NCBI GenBank assembly: GCA_026004795.1
Contig: BPJV01000001.1
Coordinates: forward strand, 1-64,000
DNA: 64,000 nucleotides
Direction: 5' to 3'
Source of the DNA: Pirellulaceae bacterium
GTDB taxonomy: Bacteria > Planctomycetota > Planctomycetia > Pirellulales > Pirellulaceae
Shown: piece after piece, positions 38,083 to 41,896 of the stretch
How positions within the stretch are numbered: the stretch's first letter is position 1
Layout of the letters: the number at the start of each line of letters is the position of its first letter
Notes under the pieces: generated by a model
Seen by the model: only the letters and a program-made list of their open reading frames with translations
Told to the model about the DNA's origin: nothing
Databases searched by the model: none
Position numbers and translations under genes: made by a program

Positions 38083-38606
38083 TACGCTGTTCCCTAAAAT
38101 TGCCTTCTAATTACTAGTCGTAACCATTTGTCGGGCCCTCCACCCCCATGCAAAACACGAAGAGAGCATCTTACTTTCCACCATCCGACTGAACAAGGAC
38201 TCACGTCCGCCCATTCGACCAAGAGGAAATCGGTTTCGGCCAGCGTGCCACCCTCCCCATGCCGCTGCCCCCCCAAATATTTGGTGCCACCCATCCTCCA
38301 ACTATTAAATATTGAGTGCCATCCATAATTTGACTGTGCCATTCAGAGCCCCAACCAATGAATTCCAGCTTTGTGCTGCCCCGTGGATGGCTGGGCTTTG
38401 TAGATGGGGGTGATTCAAGGCCAGGGCAACAACAGCTCACGGCCTTTCCGTCCAGCAGCAGGCTGGTTGGTGAGCCAGCGGCCTGCAGTGAGATCGGTAC
38501 AATCTAGCAAGCAAAGAAACCTATCCGCATTTCGCTCCTTGGTGAGCCGGGGCGGCTCGCCGCGCGATTTGGGGGAAGGGCGAAGGGATTAACTGGGCAG
38601 TTGCGC
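38083..38606. other. Intergenic region between ilvH and the RAYT gene, with a repeat cluster
   Basis: About 520 bases. The ilvH-proximal part should hold the ilvH promoter. I looked for a T-box or attenuator-type leader and saw none. The centre (38244-38344) contains inverted copies of the GGGTGGCAC repeat, described separately. The remainder up to the RAYT stop shows no gene. Confidence 0.5.
38244..38344 (-). repeat. REP-like repeat cluster (left side of RAYT gene)
   Basis: On the minus strand these read GGGTGGCACG (38253-38244), GGGTGGCACC (38292-38283), GGATGGCACT (38324-38315) and GAATGGCACAG (38344-38334), spaced 39, 32 and about 20 bases apart. The first two match the GGGTGGCACC core found on the plus strand right of the RAYT gene; the last two are degenerate. 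GGTG-N-CACC is a short imperfect palindrome. Confidence 0.7.
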
Positions 38607-39845
38607 TCAGGTCGGCGGGGAGGAAAAACACTGATCGGCCAGCCGCTGGCCTCGAGCCCAGCGGCGACCAGTCCGCTCGGCATGCCGACTCATGCTCTCG
38701 GAGCGACCGGCACACGTGCTGCGGCCGAAGTAGCGACCAAAGTTCCACACCACGTCGCACCACAACCCAGCGTCTATCCCCAGCTTCGCCAACACCCCCT
38801 GCACACCAGCAGGCGGCTTGCCAGACGCTTCCCCGCTGTTGACCGCCGACTCGGCTGACTTGGTCGAATCGGCCGACTGGCGGCCATGGCCACTGAGCGG
38901 GCTCTTCTGCGCGGCAACCCACTCCAACAGCTTACGGTACTCCTCCCAGGAGAGCATCAAAAACCCCTTGTCGCTGGCTCGCACACCGCCACGGTGCACT
39001 TGCGGGTCAGCCGCCGAAATGCTCGCATCGGCCGACAACGGCGCTAACCAACCGTCGCGGGCAATACGCTGGCCGGTCGGATTGCGTCGCTGACGCTGCT
39101 TCCTCTGCTTGATCTGCGCCGAGGTGTGCGTGCGGAGAATCTCCCCCGCCTGCTCGGTAGGGATCGATCGGATCGGATAAGCGGCCGAGGCTATCGTCTG
39201 GCCCTGCTGCGCTTGGATCCGATCGTAGGCCGAAGTGAAGGGGGCCTGGGAGGGCTGGCTGGCCATGGCAGCACGCACAGGGTTGAGGTCCACGTACATC
39301 GCGCAGGCCAATAGACCGGCTTCGTCGGTCAGCCGCTGCGCCTTGAATCGCCCCTCCCAAAATCGTCCGGTGACGTTGTCCTGGCGATTGGCCATGCGGG
39401 CGATCGGCTCGCACAGGGCACGCATCAGCCAGGAGATGTCCGACAGTCGCCGACGCACGGTGTCCAGCCGCTGTGGATCGGCCAGCAGGGCCGCCACGTC
39501 GCTGTCGGTCGGCTCTCCCAGATGCTCTTCCAAGCGGTGCCCGGGGAATAGCCGTAGCCACCGGATGGCCACCTCCCGGTCGCTCCACTGAGCGACGACG
39601 TCGGGGCGGGTGCGGAGGATGACGTGCAAGTGGTTGGACATGATGGCATAGGTGAGTACGTCGATGCCGAAGACCGAGGCGAGGGCCTCGAGGCGGCGTC
39701 GGATCCACTCGCGGCGGTAGCTGTAGTCTTGGCCGGAGAGGGGATCGACCCCAGCGAGAAAGGCACGGCGGACACAGCGTTGGACACAGTGGACGATGGC
39801 GATTTCGCCGGGAGTCCACTGTTCGGCACGTTTGGGTCTTCCCAT
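38607..39845 (-). CDS. REP-associated tyrosine transposase (RAYT/TnpA_REP, Y1-type)
   Basis: 412 residues from ATG 39845, with CAGGAG seven bases upstream; the frame runs open to 39971 without a ribosome site. The core is a Y1/HUH single-strand transposase: the metal site MSNHLHVILRT (His-x-His), an N-terminal MGRPKRAEQW start, a RLEALASVFGIDVLTYAIM strand-helix unit and ALCEPIARMANRQDNVTGRFWEGRF, then CAMYVDLNPVRAAM, the conserved block near the catalytic Tyr. A C-terminal extension of about 150 residues is Ser/Ala-rich. RAYTs process REP sequences as single-stranded DNA and lack IS200-type ends. Inverted REP-like repeats flank this gene on both sides. Confidence 0.88.
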   Translation of the reverse strand: MGRPKRAEQWTPGEIAIVHCVQRCVRRAFLAGVDPLSGQDYSYRREWIRRRLEALASVFGIDVLTYAIMSNHLHVILRTRPDVVAQWSDREVAIRWLRLFPGHRLEEHLGEPTDSDVAALLADPQRLDTVRRRLSDISWLMRALCEPIARMANRQDNVTGRFWEGRFKAQRLTDEAGLLACAMYVDLNPVRAAMASQPSQAPFTSAYDRIQAQQGQTIASAAYPIRSIPTEQAGEILRTHTSAQIKQRKQRQRRNPTGQRIARDGWLAPLSADASISAADPQVHRGGVRASDKGFLMLSWEEYRKLLEWVAAQKSPLSGHGRQSADSTKSAESAVNSGEASGKPPAGVQGVLAKLGIDAGLWCDVVWNFGRYFGRSTCAGRSESMSRHAERTGRRWARGQRLADQCFSSPPT

Positions 39846-40032
39846 GGGGCAACTCCTGGGGGAGGAGACGAAACAGGGCAGCAAATACCGTTGGGAGGAT
39901 TCCCTGCCACGGCAGGGCACCTCGACCGACGCAGGGCCACCAGGCCAATGGGCACAAGGCACACCGCCCAAGCGGCGGCAAGCAGGCAGACACCATTAGA
40001 GCAGATCGGCCGACCGATGGCAAGAAAAAAAT

Positions 40033-40108
40033 GGGTGGCACCGTTTGTTGTTTGTGGTTATAGAAAGGTGGGTGGCACCGTTTGTGCCGTTTGTGGTTTT
40101 GTGGGTGG
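40033..40108 (+). repeat. REP-like repeat array, part 1 (units A, B and start of C)
   Basis: Core GGGTGGCACCG at 40033-40043 (A) and 40070-40080 (B), 37 bases apart, each followed by a TTTGT...TTTGTGGTT spacer; unit C begins GGGTGG at 40103-40108 and is broken there by the IS element. Orientation is opposite to the cluster left of the RAYT gene. Confidence 0.85.
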
Positions 40109-41772
40109 CACGAATGGCACAGTCGTTGTTTGTTTGCTGCTGTCAGCGCAGAATCTGACTGTTGGCAGCCCGGACTTTTTTGTTAAAACTTTGGGCTGCA
40201 CATGCGAAAAAACTGGTATTGTCATGAAATCCTTCCTGGTTTCATGATGTTGAGACCCTTCCTGGTGTCTGCCTCGCAGTTGAGACCGGGGAGGGTCTTT
40301 CTCATGGCCTCTATACCATTTTGTCCGCCTAAACGCAGCTTCGATTTTGGGAAGACACTGGGTGCCTTTTTCGCTCAGCCGGGATTGCCGTTTTCGAAGA
40401 TCCTCACCGCCGAGCTGATTGAGAGCATCTTCCGTAAACACGGAGGAATGTTCGGACGGGTCTACACCACCTCGATCGTGCTCTGGGCCTTTATGAGTCA
40501 GGTACTTCGTGACGGCAAGGAGGCGGCTTGCCAATCGGCCGTCAGCCGAATTGCCAGCTATTTGCAATGGACCGGTCAGGGCAAGATCAATCCGGACACA
40601 CGGGATTATTGCCGCGCACGAGCGAAACTCAGTTCCGTAGCACTCCGCGAACTGGCCGGTACGATTGCCTCGCAGTGCCAGCAGCAAGTCGATCCGAAGC
40701 ATCTGTTCCGGGGCCGACACGCCAAGCTGGTCGATGGTGCCACGTTCATGATGGCCGACACGGCCGCCAACCAGGCCGCGTATCCCCAAAATCCGGCGCA
40801 GCAACCGGGAATTGGTTTTCCCATCGCCCGATTCGTCACCGTCATTTCGTTGGCCACCGCTTGCGTCATCGATGCGGCCATGACGAAGTACAAGGGCAAG
40901 CAGACCGGAGAGACCGCATTGCTGAGGCAGTTGCTGCATTGCTTTTCACCGGGTGATATTGCCGTGGCAGACCGATTCTATGGCAACTATTGGATGATCG
41001 CGTTGCTGATCCGGTGTGGAGCTGATGTCTGCTTCCGAAAGCATCAAAAACGGCACACCGACTTTCGCGTTGGCCGGCGACTGGGCAAGAACGACCATCT
41101 GGTCACGTGGCGTCGTCCGTCGCGTCCCCCGTGGATGGACCAGCGATTGTATGAGAGCATGCCCGAAGCGATCACTCTTCGTGAGATTCGCTACATGGTG
41201 GTCGCCGCCGGAAGAAAGCAGCAACCGTTTGTGATCGTGACGACGCTGATCACCGACGAAGGCGAACAAGAATTCGGTGTGGAGGATCTCGCCGAGCTAT
41301 TCAGTTTTCGCTGGAACGCCGAATTGGACTTGCGATCGATCAAGACGCATCTGAATCTGCACCATCTTCGGTGCAAGAGCCCAGCGATGGTGCATCGCGA
41401 ATTCTGGACGACCATCATCGCCTACAATGCGATCCGCATAACGGCCGCTCGCAGTGCCGAACTTGCCGGTGTTTGCCCACGACAGATCAGTTTTGTTACC
41501 ACTTGCCAATACGTGCTGGCCGCTTGGGATGTGATCGCTAGCGGCTCCTTACCTCCAGCGGCATTGCAAGCCTATTGCATGGCTCAACTGAAGCAGATTG
41601 CCCAGTGTTTGGTGGGAAACCGTCCGGGCCGTTTCGAGCCACGCGTCCGCAAGAAACGGGCCAGCAATTACAACTTGATGATGCAACCTAGCCACATGCT
41701 CAAATCCAAGCTCGCCCGAGGCGACAACTCCTTTGAAACCAAATAGTTGTAACTACGACTGTGCCATTCGTG
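40109..41772 (+). mobile_element. IS4-family insertion sequence with 18-bp terminal inverted repeats
   Basis: The ends are CACGAATGGCACAGTCGT (40109-40126) and its exact reverse complement ACGACTGTGCCATTCGTG (41755-41772). The element is 1664 bp and carries one transposase gene on the plus strand. It is flanked by a direct repeat GGTGG (40104-40108 and 41773-41777), a 5-bp target-site duplication. Removing the element and one GGTGG restores GTGGGTGGCACCGAAATG, a complete unit of the surrounding repeat, which is strong internal evidence for these boundaries. Transposase and both ends are intact, so the element may be active. Confidence 0.9.
40304..41746 (+). CDS. IS4-family DDE transposase
   Basis: 480 residues from ATG 40304, preceded by GGGGAGGG; the frame is open to 40202 but without a ribosome site. 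DDE catalytic residues are visible: Asp in KLVDGATFMMADT, Asp in GDIAVADRFYGNYW, and Glu in FSFRWNAELDLRSIKTHL, where the IS4 signature Y-x2-R-x3-E-x6-K appears as F-x2-R-x3-E-x6-K. The N-terminal part (ELIESIFRKHGGM and SQVLRDGKEAACQSAVSRI) is typical of this IS4 subgroup. It occupies almost the whole element between the inverted repeats, with no sign of truncation. Confidence 0.93.
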   Translation: MASIPFCPPKRSFDFGKTLGAFFAQPGLPFSKILTAELIESIFRKHGGMFGRVYTTSIVLWAFMSQVLRDGKEAACQSAVSRIASYLQWTGQGKINPDTRDYCRARAKLSSVALRELAGTIASQCQQQVDPKHLFRGRHAKLVDGATFMMADTAANQAAYPQNPAQQPGIGFPIARFVTVISLATACVIDAAMTKYKGKQTGETALLRQLLHCFSPGDIAVADRFYGNYWMIALLIRCGADVCFRKHQKRHTDFRVGRRLGKNDHLVTWRRPSRPPWMDQRLYESMPEAITLREIRYMVVAAGRKQQPFVIVTTLITDEGEQEFGVEDLAELFSFRWNAELDLRSIKTHLNLHHLRCKSPAMVHREFWTTIIAYNAIRITAARSAELAGVCPRQISFVTTCQYVLAAWDVIASGSLPPAALQAYCMAQLKQIAQCLVGNRPGRFEPRVRKKRASNYNLMMQPSHMLKSKLARGDNSFETK

Positions 41773-41854
41773 GGTGGCACCGAAATGAGCCGTTATCGCA
41801 AGAGAAAGATGGGTGGCACCGAAATGGATGGCAAGAGAAAGGTGGGTGGCACCG
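41773..41854 (+). repeat. REP-like repeat array, part 2 (rest of unit C, units D and E)
   Basis: GGTGGCACCG at 41773-41782 (rest of C after the IS), GGGTGGCACCG at 41811-41821 (D) and 41844-41854 (E). Spacers here contain AAATG and GCAAGAGAAAG, a second spacer subtype distinct from units A and B. With the IS removed, the five cores lie 37, 33, 39 and 33 bases apart. Confidence 0.85.
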
Positions 41855-41896
41855 AAATACGCCGAAATATGCTGCGAGTGGGGCGGATGGGGGAGG

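What the first reader, a model, noticed from the sequence alone, without database searches (positions are those of the whole stretch)
38244..41854. Probable planctomycete REPtron: a RAYT gene between inverted GGGTGGCACCG repeat clusters
A Y1/HUH transposase of RAYT type (38607-39845, minus) is flanked by short intergenic repeats. On the right, five copies of GGGTGGCACCG on the plus strand are spaced 33-39 bases; on the left, two clear and two degenerate copies appear on the minus strand. A RAYT gene bracketed by inverted REPs is the known REPtron layout of enterobacteria and pseudomonads. The core differs from the familiar REP with a GTAG/GGAG foot, and the units carry two spacer subtypes, so this would be a distinct REP family.
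Basis: partly seen in the sequence, partly recalled or inferred. Interest (0 to 1): 0.78.

Follow-up and report, generated by a model that had tools for sequence, protein, structure and literature searches.

The report
Jumping RAYT-type element, not fixed REPtron
In this planctomycete a gene of the supposedly "tamed" RAYT transposase type sits in a small mobile element present in nine near-identical places, and the short repeats around it are the element's own ends, reiterated into small arrays and partly used as a landing site by a second, unrelated insertion sequence.

Summary
The repeats are real, but they belong to a mobile element. TGGGTGGCAC occurs 126 times in the genome against 12 for the reversed control; 5 of 115 copies examined lie in coding-like ORFs. 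The RAYT-type gene occurs at nine places at 97-100% protein identity, in a discrete ~1.87-kb element. Eight of eight copies with a left end begin at GTGCCACCCA; the right end carries TGGGTGGCAC exactly in 4 of 9 copies and a 1-2-mismatch form in 3. Relatives with at least 50% identity have the left-end motif in 22 of 28 distinct loci, more distant ones in 0 of 12; other clades have other ends. So it is a multicopy, IS-like TIRtron rather than a classical REPtron; no GTAG-footed REP hairpin was seen. Array neighbours share DNA beyond the core, so arrays look like tandem duplications of the element-end/flank junction. New is evidence for mobility in a transposase class said to show none (PMC6006769, passages). 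Single-strand chemistry is inferred.

The parts
38607..39845 (-). RAYT-type Y1/HUH transposase gene, 412 aa
   Evidence: H72 and H74 invariant, Y184 and N188-P189 nearly invariant over 32 sequences; Pfam Y1_Tnp at E up to 1 in 30 of 32 members, for the window protein 15.4 bits against a cut-off of 23; NCBIfam NF047646 partial, 39.1 bits against a cut-off of 80
39846..40043 (-). left end (5' side of the gene) of the mobile element; terminus GTGCCACCCA, read on the - strand at 40032-40041
   Evidence: start of homology in 8 of 8 own-genome copies that have a left end
38370..38606 (-). right arm of the element, with a break in homology at 38467/38468 (internal deletion relative to other copies); beyond 38370 this copy is degenerate
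38244..38346 (-). degenerate repeat cluster at and beyond the right end: GTGCCACCC 38245-38253, GGTGCCACCCA 38283-38293, GTGCCATCC 38316-38324, GTGCCATTC 38336-38344
40032..40111 (+). first part of the right-hand array: TGGGTGGCAC at 40032, 40069, 40102 (the first is the element's own left end)
40101..40111 (+). left target-site duplication of the IS4-family element, GTGGGTGGCAC (one repeat core)
40112..41769 (+). IS4-family insertion sequence, 1,658 bp, inserted in a repeat core; terminal inverted repeat begins GAATGGCACAGTCGT
   Evidence: (I2)
40202..41746 (+). IS4-family DDE transposase ORF, 514 aa (the true start may lie downstream)
   Evidence: NCBIfam NF033592 187.9 bits against a cut-off of 115; Pfam DDE_Tnp_1 39.7 bits against 23
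41770..41780 (+). right target-site duplication, GTGGGTGGCAC
41770..41863 (+). rest of the right-hand array: TGGGTGGCAC at 41771, 41810, 41843

Best explanation
The locus is one copy of a mobile element that moves with its own RAYT-type (class 2) Y1 transposase: an IS-like 'TIRtron'. Shown: the gene and its flanks form a discrete ~1.87-kb unit repeated in the genome; the left terminus is GTGCCACCCA (in relatives the fuller GGTGCCACCCACC) and the right terminus lies at TGGGTGGCAC or a close variant (GGTGGGTGGCACC in several relatives), so the 'repeats' are the element's inverted ends; extra end copies stand in short tandem arrays whose units include DNA beyond the core; end-like repeats also lie dispersed without a full gene beside them; an IS4-family element has landed in the core. 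Inferred: the transposase recognises the end as single strand, cuts it with its tyrosine and joins it elsewhere; repeated cutting and rejoining, or slippage, at the end/flank junction reiterates it into REP-like arrays; stray end pairs move as non-autonomous copies.
For: Nine places at 97-100% protein identity, the ninth matched only at residues 68-412 and with one stop. Left end at the same base in 8 of 8 copies that have it, mostly unrelated flanks outside. Copies within other genomes also share a bounded stretch: G037 95.6-98.1% over ~1.36-1.38 kb (overlapping stretches left aside), G023 99.3% over 1,537 bp; in G045, G019 and G009 copies are 80-96% alike. Left-end motif within 160 nt of the start codon in 23 of 30 loci at >=50% identity against 0 of 12 below; two pairs of loci are the same DNA, without them 22 of 28 against 0 of 12, Fisher p 3.3e-6. 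Upstream copies in the opposite orientation in 1 of 44 loci (L184). End motifs change with the clade: AGGGACAGAG/CTCTGTCCCT (G037), GGGGCCATCCA/TGGGTGGCCCC (G019), AGGGACAGGC/GGGTGGCCCT (G045). Core 126 against 12, 5 of 115 in coding-like ORFs against 67% of 2,000 random window positions. Array neighbours share 12 nt beyond the core at 72% (own, 25 pairs) and 81% (G038, 27 pairs) against 34% and 51% for random site pairs. Thirteen of 14 congeners searched have ilvC-ilvH, none with a listed hit to the element beside it.
Against: The right end is less uniform: exact core in 4 of 9 own copies (C7, C5_193, C3_288, C4_11), 1-2 mismatches in 3 (C1_294, C9_100, C5_191), absent in C3_699 and degenerate in the window copy; two G023 copies have no GGTGGCAC right end, and in G045 the two ends are not inverted copies of each other. 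Two G073 copies share only 549 nt at 69.6%. No base-exact empty site was obtained and no movement was observed. Of 20 genomes with a close RAYT 11 have the motif at 3 times the control or more, so 9 do not (G011, G075, G037, G086 and G087 among them), while 11 of 53 with a weaker match and 4 of 27 without one do. Nearly half of the own copies (54 of 115) lie in duplicated cassette leaders, so 126 overstates independent events. The coding measure is crude (one of five training genes scores under its threshold). The structure model failed (mean pLDDT 45.5), so the HUH fold rests on motifs and weak profile hits.
Confidence: 0.8

Rival explanations
1. Classical REPtron: a fixed, domesticated RAYT gene that disperses non-autonomous REPs in trans and does not itself move.
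For: Inverted repeat clusters on both sides of the gene; dispersed, mostly intergenic repeat; 29 of 33 G038 loci shown have no RAYT match (but 18 of the 33 have under 500 nt of DNA beyond the motif on one side); RAYT-type motifs; G096 has 27 copies around one gene.
Against: Nine near-identical copies of the gene with a common left end; multicopy, bounded copies in other genomes; no REP-type hairpin seen.
Confidence: 0.1
2. The repeat is chiefly a by-product of other duplicated DNA (polymorphic-toxin/Rhs-like cassette arrays and IS4 copies), and its link with the RAYT gene is incidental.
For: 54 of 115 sites fall in three clusters of cassette leaders (38, 12 and 4 members); of four cassette ORFs tested one has an Rhs-associated core and one an intein-type C-terminal region.
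Against: The motif marks RAYT element ends in other genomes, and three cassette ORFs found 1 hit among 134 non-own loci; G038 has 131 copies, with other surroundings where looked at.
Confidence: 0.05
3. The RAYT elements are passive passengers: copies spread by homologous recombination between repeats or by the IS4-family transposase, not by their own transposase.
For: C1_294 and C4_11 have similar right-hand surroundings; nested copies at C4; the IS4 element lies in the repeat.
Against: Most other flanks in the own genome are unrelated; G009 and G023 have multicopy RAYT elements and no IS4 match at E<=1e-60, G037 has one.
Confidence: 0.05

Closest known systems
TIRtron / TIRYT (TIR-associated tyrosine transposases; PMC3733652, passages read)
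   Same: RAYT-like gene flanked by terminal inverted repeats rather than hairpin REPs; the repeats can form dispersed families, in dimers or clusters. The paper also says that R. baltica (a planctomycete, recalled) has a plethora of tyrosine transposase genes and corresponding flanking repeats.
   Different: Here near-identical multicopy elements with a defined left end, arrays of up to 18 units on one side (G096) and clade-specific end motifs; the published GGGGWSAS motif is not matched exactly (GGTGGCAC agrees at 6 of 8 positions, by eye).
REPtron / RAYT with REPs (PMC2817692, PMC3116915, PMC8266576: search listing and abstract starts; PMC6006769: passages and section 22)
   Same: HUH and Y---NP signature; gene between inverted repeats; dispersed repeat; a few inverted repeat pairs that resemble REPINs.
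   Different: Gene multicopy at 97-100% identity; no GTAG/GGAG-footed hairpin seen; repeats are the termini of the element.
Subclass 2.3 of class 2 Y1 proteins (PMC6006769, section 22)
   Same: [quoted passage not shown] the authors infer recent and active spreading there; no REP-like flanks.
   Different: The paper reports that those copies lack high intragenomic conservation; here copies are 97-100% alike and ends are defined. Membership in 2.3 was not tested.
IS200/IS605 family (class 1 Y1 transposases)
   Same: Discrete element, many near-identical copies, Y1 transposase; a short 5-bp-stem hairpin lies inside the left end here.
   Different: Class 2 signature Y---NP instead of the class 1 Y----Q (signatures from PMC6006769 passages); short inverted repeats at the very ends.
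IS elements that target REPs, e.g. ISRm22 of the IS4 family, nine copies in S. meliloti REPs (PMC1525189, passages read)
   Same: IS4-family element in repeat cores, 4 of 4 full copies here.
   Different: The target is a transposon-end repeat; relatives' copies in G019 sit in other targets.

Membership tests
REPtron (RAYT + REP) | Y1/HUH transposase with class 2 signature Y---NP | tested here: met
   H72, H74 invariant, Y184 and N188-P189 nearly invariant over 32 sequences, one of them masked at the Y motif; NCBIfam NF047646 below its cut-off
REPtron (RAYT + REP) | gene bracketed by inverted repeats of a dispersed intergenic family | tested here: met
REPtron (RAYT + REP) | repeat is a hairpin with a GTAG/GGAG-type tetranucleotide foot | tested here: not met
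   three end sequences and one two-unit stretch folded: z 0.16, 0.29, 0.58 and -1.87; no such foot beside the core by eye. A 5-bp-stem hairpin lies inside the left end, away from the core
REPtron (RAYT + REP) | gene not mobile, copies within a genome few and diverged | tested here: not met
   nine places, 97-100% identical
TIRtron / TIRYT | RAYT-like gene flanked by terminal inverted repeats that may form a dispersed family | tested here: met
   the right end varies between copies
TIRtron / TIRYT | GGGGWSAS motif in the inverted repeat (shared by some, not all, TIRtrons) | tested here: not met
   GGTGGCAC differs at two of eight positions; compared by eye
TIRtron / TIRYT | protein belongs to subclass 2.1 or a TIRYT group | not tested
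   no reference sequences of the subclasses were at hand
IS200/IS605 | class 1 Y----Q signature | tested here: not met
   motif is YVDLNP
IS200/IS605 | discrete element in many near-identical copies | tested here: met
IS200/IS605 | single-strand circle, no target duplication | tested here: inconclusive
   no direct repeat by eye at C7_136 and C1_294; the intermediate cannot be tested here
IS4 family (second element) | DDE transposase above the curated cut-off, terminal inverted repeats, target duplication | tested here: met
   187.9 bits against 115; 11-bp duplication at 3 of 4 full copies, 10 of 11 at the fourth

The most novel reading that the evidence does not exclude
The same transposase recombines other DNA bounded by its end sequence: the leaders of displaced Rhs/polymorphic-toxin-like cassettes in this genome begin with the identical GTGCCACCCA, so a RAYT-type enzyme may have cut, duplicated or moved such cassettes and helped to build their arrays.
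Probability: 0.06. Interest if true: 0.85.

Novelty: new variant of a known kind. Interest (0 to 1): 0.5.

Why it matters
RAYTs are thought to descend from IS200/IS605-type transposases by domestication. [quoted passage not shown] A class 2 family with near-identical copies, a defined left end and clade-specific end motifs would be a living intermediate. Because the ends change with the transposase clade while end copies pile up at the junctions, it offers a natural series for asking how REP-like arrays arise.

Tried and rejected
Using GGGTGGCACCG as probe: too specific, 28 against 16; replaced by TGGGTGGCAC. A fold of the RAYT protein from 8 sequences gave mean pLDDT 45.5 and was not used; no fold search was made. 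A profile search of solved structures found nothing at E up to 10. A profile search of the own genome for further RAYT families found only the nine known places and one match at E 1.04, so no RAYT family of their own was found for the cassette leaders. Nested copies at C4 gave no clean insertion point. The 7.4-kb window region in 15 genomes of the genus gave no base-exact empty site: no epimerase hit lies beside ilvH there (up to 20 candidates a genome were scored). Integron attC sites were considered for the same-orientation arrays and dropped: no GTTRRRY box was seen by eye (motif recalled). Extra end copies within 80 nt outside the ends (up to 2 mismatches): 15 of 46 left ends and 16 of 38 right ends, with 26 hits for two control patterns together, so enriched but noisy; one search is the better test. 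A paper search for the motif letters gave 20 papers whose listed titles are all on other subjects (listing only). TIRYT/TIRtron gave two papers. RAYT with planctomycet gave 50 papers, 15 listed; passages of two of those were read.

Rows dropped and limits: the table holds 115 of the 126 own-genome copies, those inside the stretches fetched. One search used 42 of the 44 loci (L128 and L133 have almost no upstream DNA); L129 and L167 have under 160 nt upstream, and several loci there hold only part of the gene. One search found that L122 and L173, and L125 and L171, are the same DNA, and gives the counts without L173 and L171. One search shows 33 of the 50 loci fetched for G038; L327 and L358 are the same place, and 18 of the 33 have under 500 nt beyond the motif on one side, so a gene just off the contig cannot be excluded. 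Of 8 loci of IS4 relatives looked at, ends were found in 5 and an 11-bp duplication in 3 (G045 once, G019 twice).
Full report
What is in the window. The gene at 38607-39845 (-) encodes a 412-aa protein with the HLH and Y---NP motifs of class 2 Y1 transposases, conserved over 32 relatives (one row is masked at the Y motif). Profile support is weak but consistent: Pfam Y1_Tnp in 30 of 32 members at E up to 1 (best 3.6e-4), NCBIfam 'REP-associated tyrosine transposase' at 39.1 bits, under its cut-off of 80. To its right, on +, stand five exact GGGTGGCACCG, split 2 + 3 by a complete IS4-family element of 1,658 bp at 40112-41769, whose transposase scores 187.9 bits against a cut-off of 115. Its inverted ends begin GAATGGCACAGTCGT. 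It lies in a repeat core: GTGGGTGGCAC stands directly on both sides (40101-40111 and 41770-41780).

The repeat in the genome. The genome has 5.59 Mb in 17 contigs. The 10-mer TGGGTGGCAC is: 126 against 12. Pairs GTGGCAC-N12-42-GTGGCAC number 28 against 7. I examined 115 of the 126 copies; they form 85 clusters, 23 of them with more than one copy, and 5 copies lie in coding-like ORFs where 67% of 2,000 random window positions do (a crude codon score, under whose threshold one of five training genes falls). Adjacent copies on opposite strands within 2.5 kb stand in the order GTGCCACCCA then TGGGTGGCAC in 9 of 9 cases, the order of the element's ends; seven of the nine bracket a RAYT copy, not always with that copy's own right end.

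The gene is mobile. A search with the protein finds nine places at 97-100% identity, eight over the full length. Aligned with their surroundings, eight of eight copies that keep a left end begin at GTGCCACCCA, preceded by mostly unrelated sequence. The right end, followed by TCAAGTTT or TTAAGTTT, carries TGGGTGGCAC exactly in four of nine copies and a form with 1-2 mismatches in three; it is absent in C3_699 and degenerate in the window copy. The full unit is ~1.87 kb. The window copy has a break in homology at 38467/38468. In 13 of 14 congeners ilvC and ilvH are adjacent as in the window, and no listed hit to the element lies beside them (many assemblies are fragmented, G100 is a single contig).

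Relatives. In 100 genomes of the family, the own included, 73 have a match to the protein, up to 43 places in one genome. Copies within G037 (95.6-98.1% over ~1.36-1.38 kb) and G023 (99.3% over 1,537 bp) are near-identical and bounded; in G045, G019 and G009 copies are 80-96% alike; two in G073 share only 549 nt at 69.6%. Among 44 loci of relatives, GTGCCACC lies within 160 nt upstream of the start codon in 23 of 30 usable loci at 50% identity or more and in 0 of 12 below; without duplicated loci 22 of 28 against 0 of 12, Fisher p 3.3e-6. L184, one of the 12, has the motif further out and in arrays. Distant clades have other ends: AGGGACAGAG/CTCTGTCCCT in G037, GGGGCCATCCA/TGGGTGGCCCC in G019, AGGGACAGGC/GGGTGGCCCT in G045, the last pair not inverted copies of each other. 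Thus the end tends to go with the transposase. Across the 100 genomes the motif excess is larger with a close relative of the gene: median log2 of motif over control 1.86 (20 genomes at E<=1e-100, own included), 0.70 (53 with weaker matches), 0.21 (27 without); Mann-Whitney p 3.5e-4 for close against the rest without the own genome. It is not a rule: a three-fold excess holds in 11 of 20, 11 of 53 and 4 of 27.

Arrays. In the own genome 25 neighbouring pairs of array copies, 16-68 nt apart, share 12 nt beyond the core (one base skipped) at 72%, against 34% for random pairs of sites; in G038, 27 pairs, 81% against 51%. The repeated unit thus contains DNA beyond the element's end. At the G096 locus one gene has 9 copies on its left and 18 on its right. 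In G038, of 33 loci shown, 4 have a match to the RAYT protein, all partial; but 18 of the 33 have under 500 nt beyond the motif on one side, so the gene may lie off the contig in some. Some loci are inverted pairs 39-264 nt apart, start to start (L349, L350, L352); the own genome has two such, 179 and 641 nt apart (C1:213589-213768, C9:68345-68986), whose interiors have only short, weak matches to the RAYT element beyond the ends. They look like non-autonomous copies or REPIN-like pairs.

Structure of the repeat. Single-strand folding gives no REP hairpin at the core: the end sequences fold no better than shuffles (z 0.16, 0.29, 0.58); two array units together reach -1.87. A 5-bp-stem hairpin lies inside the left end, about 30 nt from the terminus, in that same fold. 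The core GGTGGCACC is an odd palindrome, so opposite or neighbouring copies can pair.

The second element. All four full copies of the IS4-family element (C1, C2, C5, C10) sit in TGGGTGGCAC: three with an exact 11-bp duplication, the fourth with 10 of 11. A relative in G045 has the duplication GGGCCACCCAC, one letter from the core; two in G019 have unrelated 11-bp duplications. IS4-family insertion into REPs has a precedent, ISRm22 (PMC1525189, passages).

Other carriers. Three clusters of sites (38, 12 and 4 members) are leaders of what look like displaced Rhs/polymorphic-toxin-like cassettes: of four cassette ORFs tested, one has an Rhs-associated core (75.5 bits against 32.5) and one an intein-type C-terminal region (18.8 against 15.6), two had no hit, and none had a Pfam hit. 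Since three such ORFs found 1 hit in 134 non-own loci, duplication of a cassette that had received the repeat is likelier than mobilisation by the RAYT.

Verdict. A new variant of a known kind: an IS-like TIRtron with a class 2 transposase. It works like an insertion sequence; I do not file it as a classical REPtron, because the hairpin and the few-and-diverged gene copies were tested and not met. Whether the enzyme acts on single strands, as its relatives do, is inferred from the family and not tested. The nearest published hint of spreading is subclass 2.3, whose copies are reported as diverged (PMC6006769, section 22).

Noticed in passing
L063, L196, L197, L208, L212, L214, L220, L223, L225 (own genome): Arrays, mostly in one orientation, of Rhs/polymorphic-toxin-like cassettes whose leaders begin with GTGCCACCCA, the same letters as the RAYT element's left end.
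   Followed up: partly
L302 (G096:C147:36500-44500): One RAYT gene with 9 inverted copies on its left and 18 on its right, spaced mostly 23-63 nt: the largest such array seen.
   Followed up: partly
L055 (G000:C3:287665-288335): Two truncated 5' pieces of the IS4 element, each beside two repeat units, next to a RAYT copy; by eye one breakpoint there and one at C9:103390 lie at a GAGAAAG stretch that both the IS4 element and the repeat unit hold.
   Followed up: partly
window 38332-38344: 13 nt identical to the IS4 element's terminal inverted repeat on the left side of the RAYT copy, with no IS4 element annotated there.
   Followed up: no
L213 (G000:C4:10727-13252): A full RAYT element nested in a copy that keeps only stretches of its two ends.
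   Followed up: partly
left ends of relatives, e.g. L288, L290 (G009): A TTGACA...TACAAT/TATAAT-like promoter directly inside the left end, so the end probably carries the transposase promoter; read by eye.
   Followed up: no
G018, G053, G069: Genomes without a RAYT match but with more motif than control (18/3, 34/11, 29/8): remnants, or a RAYT too distant for the search.
   Followed up: no
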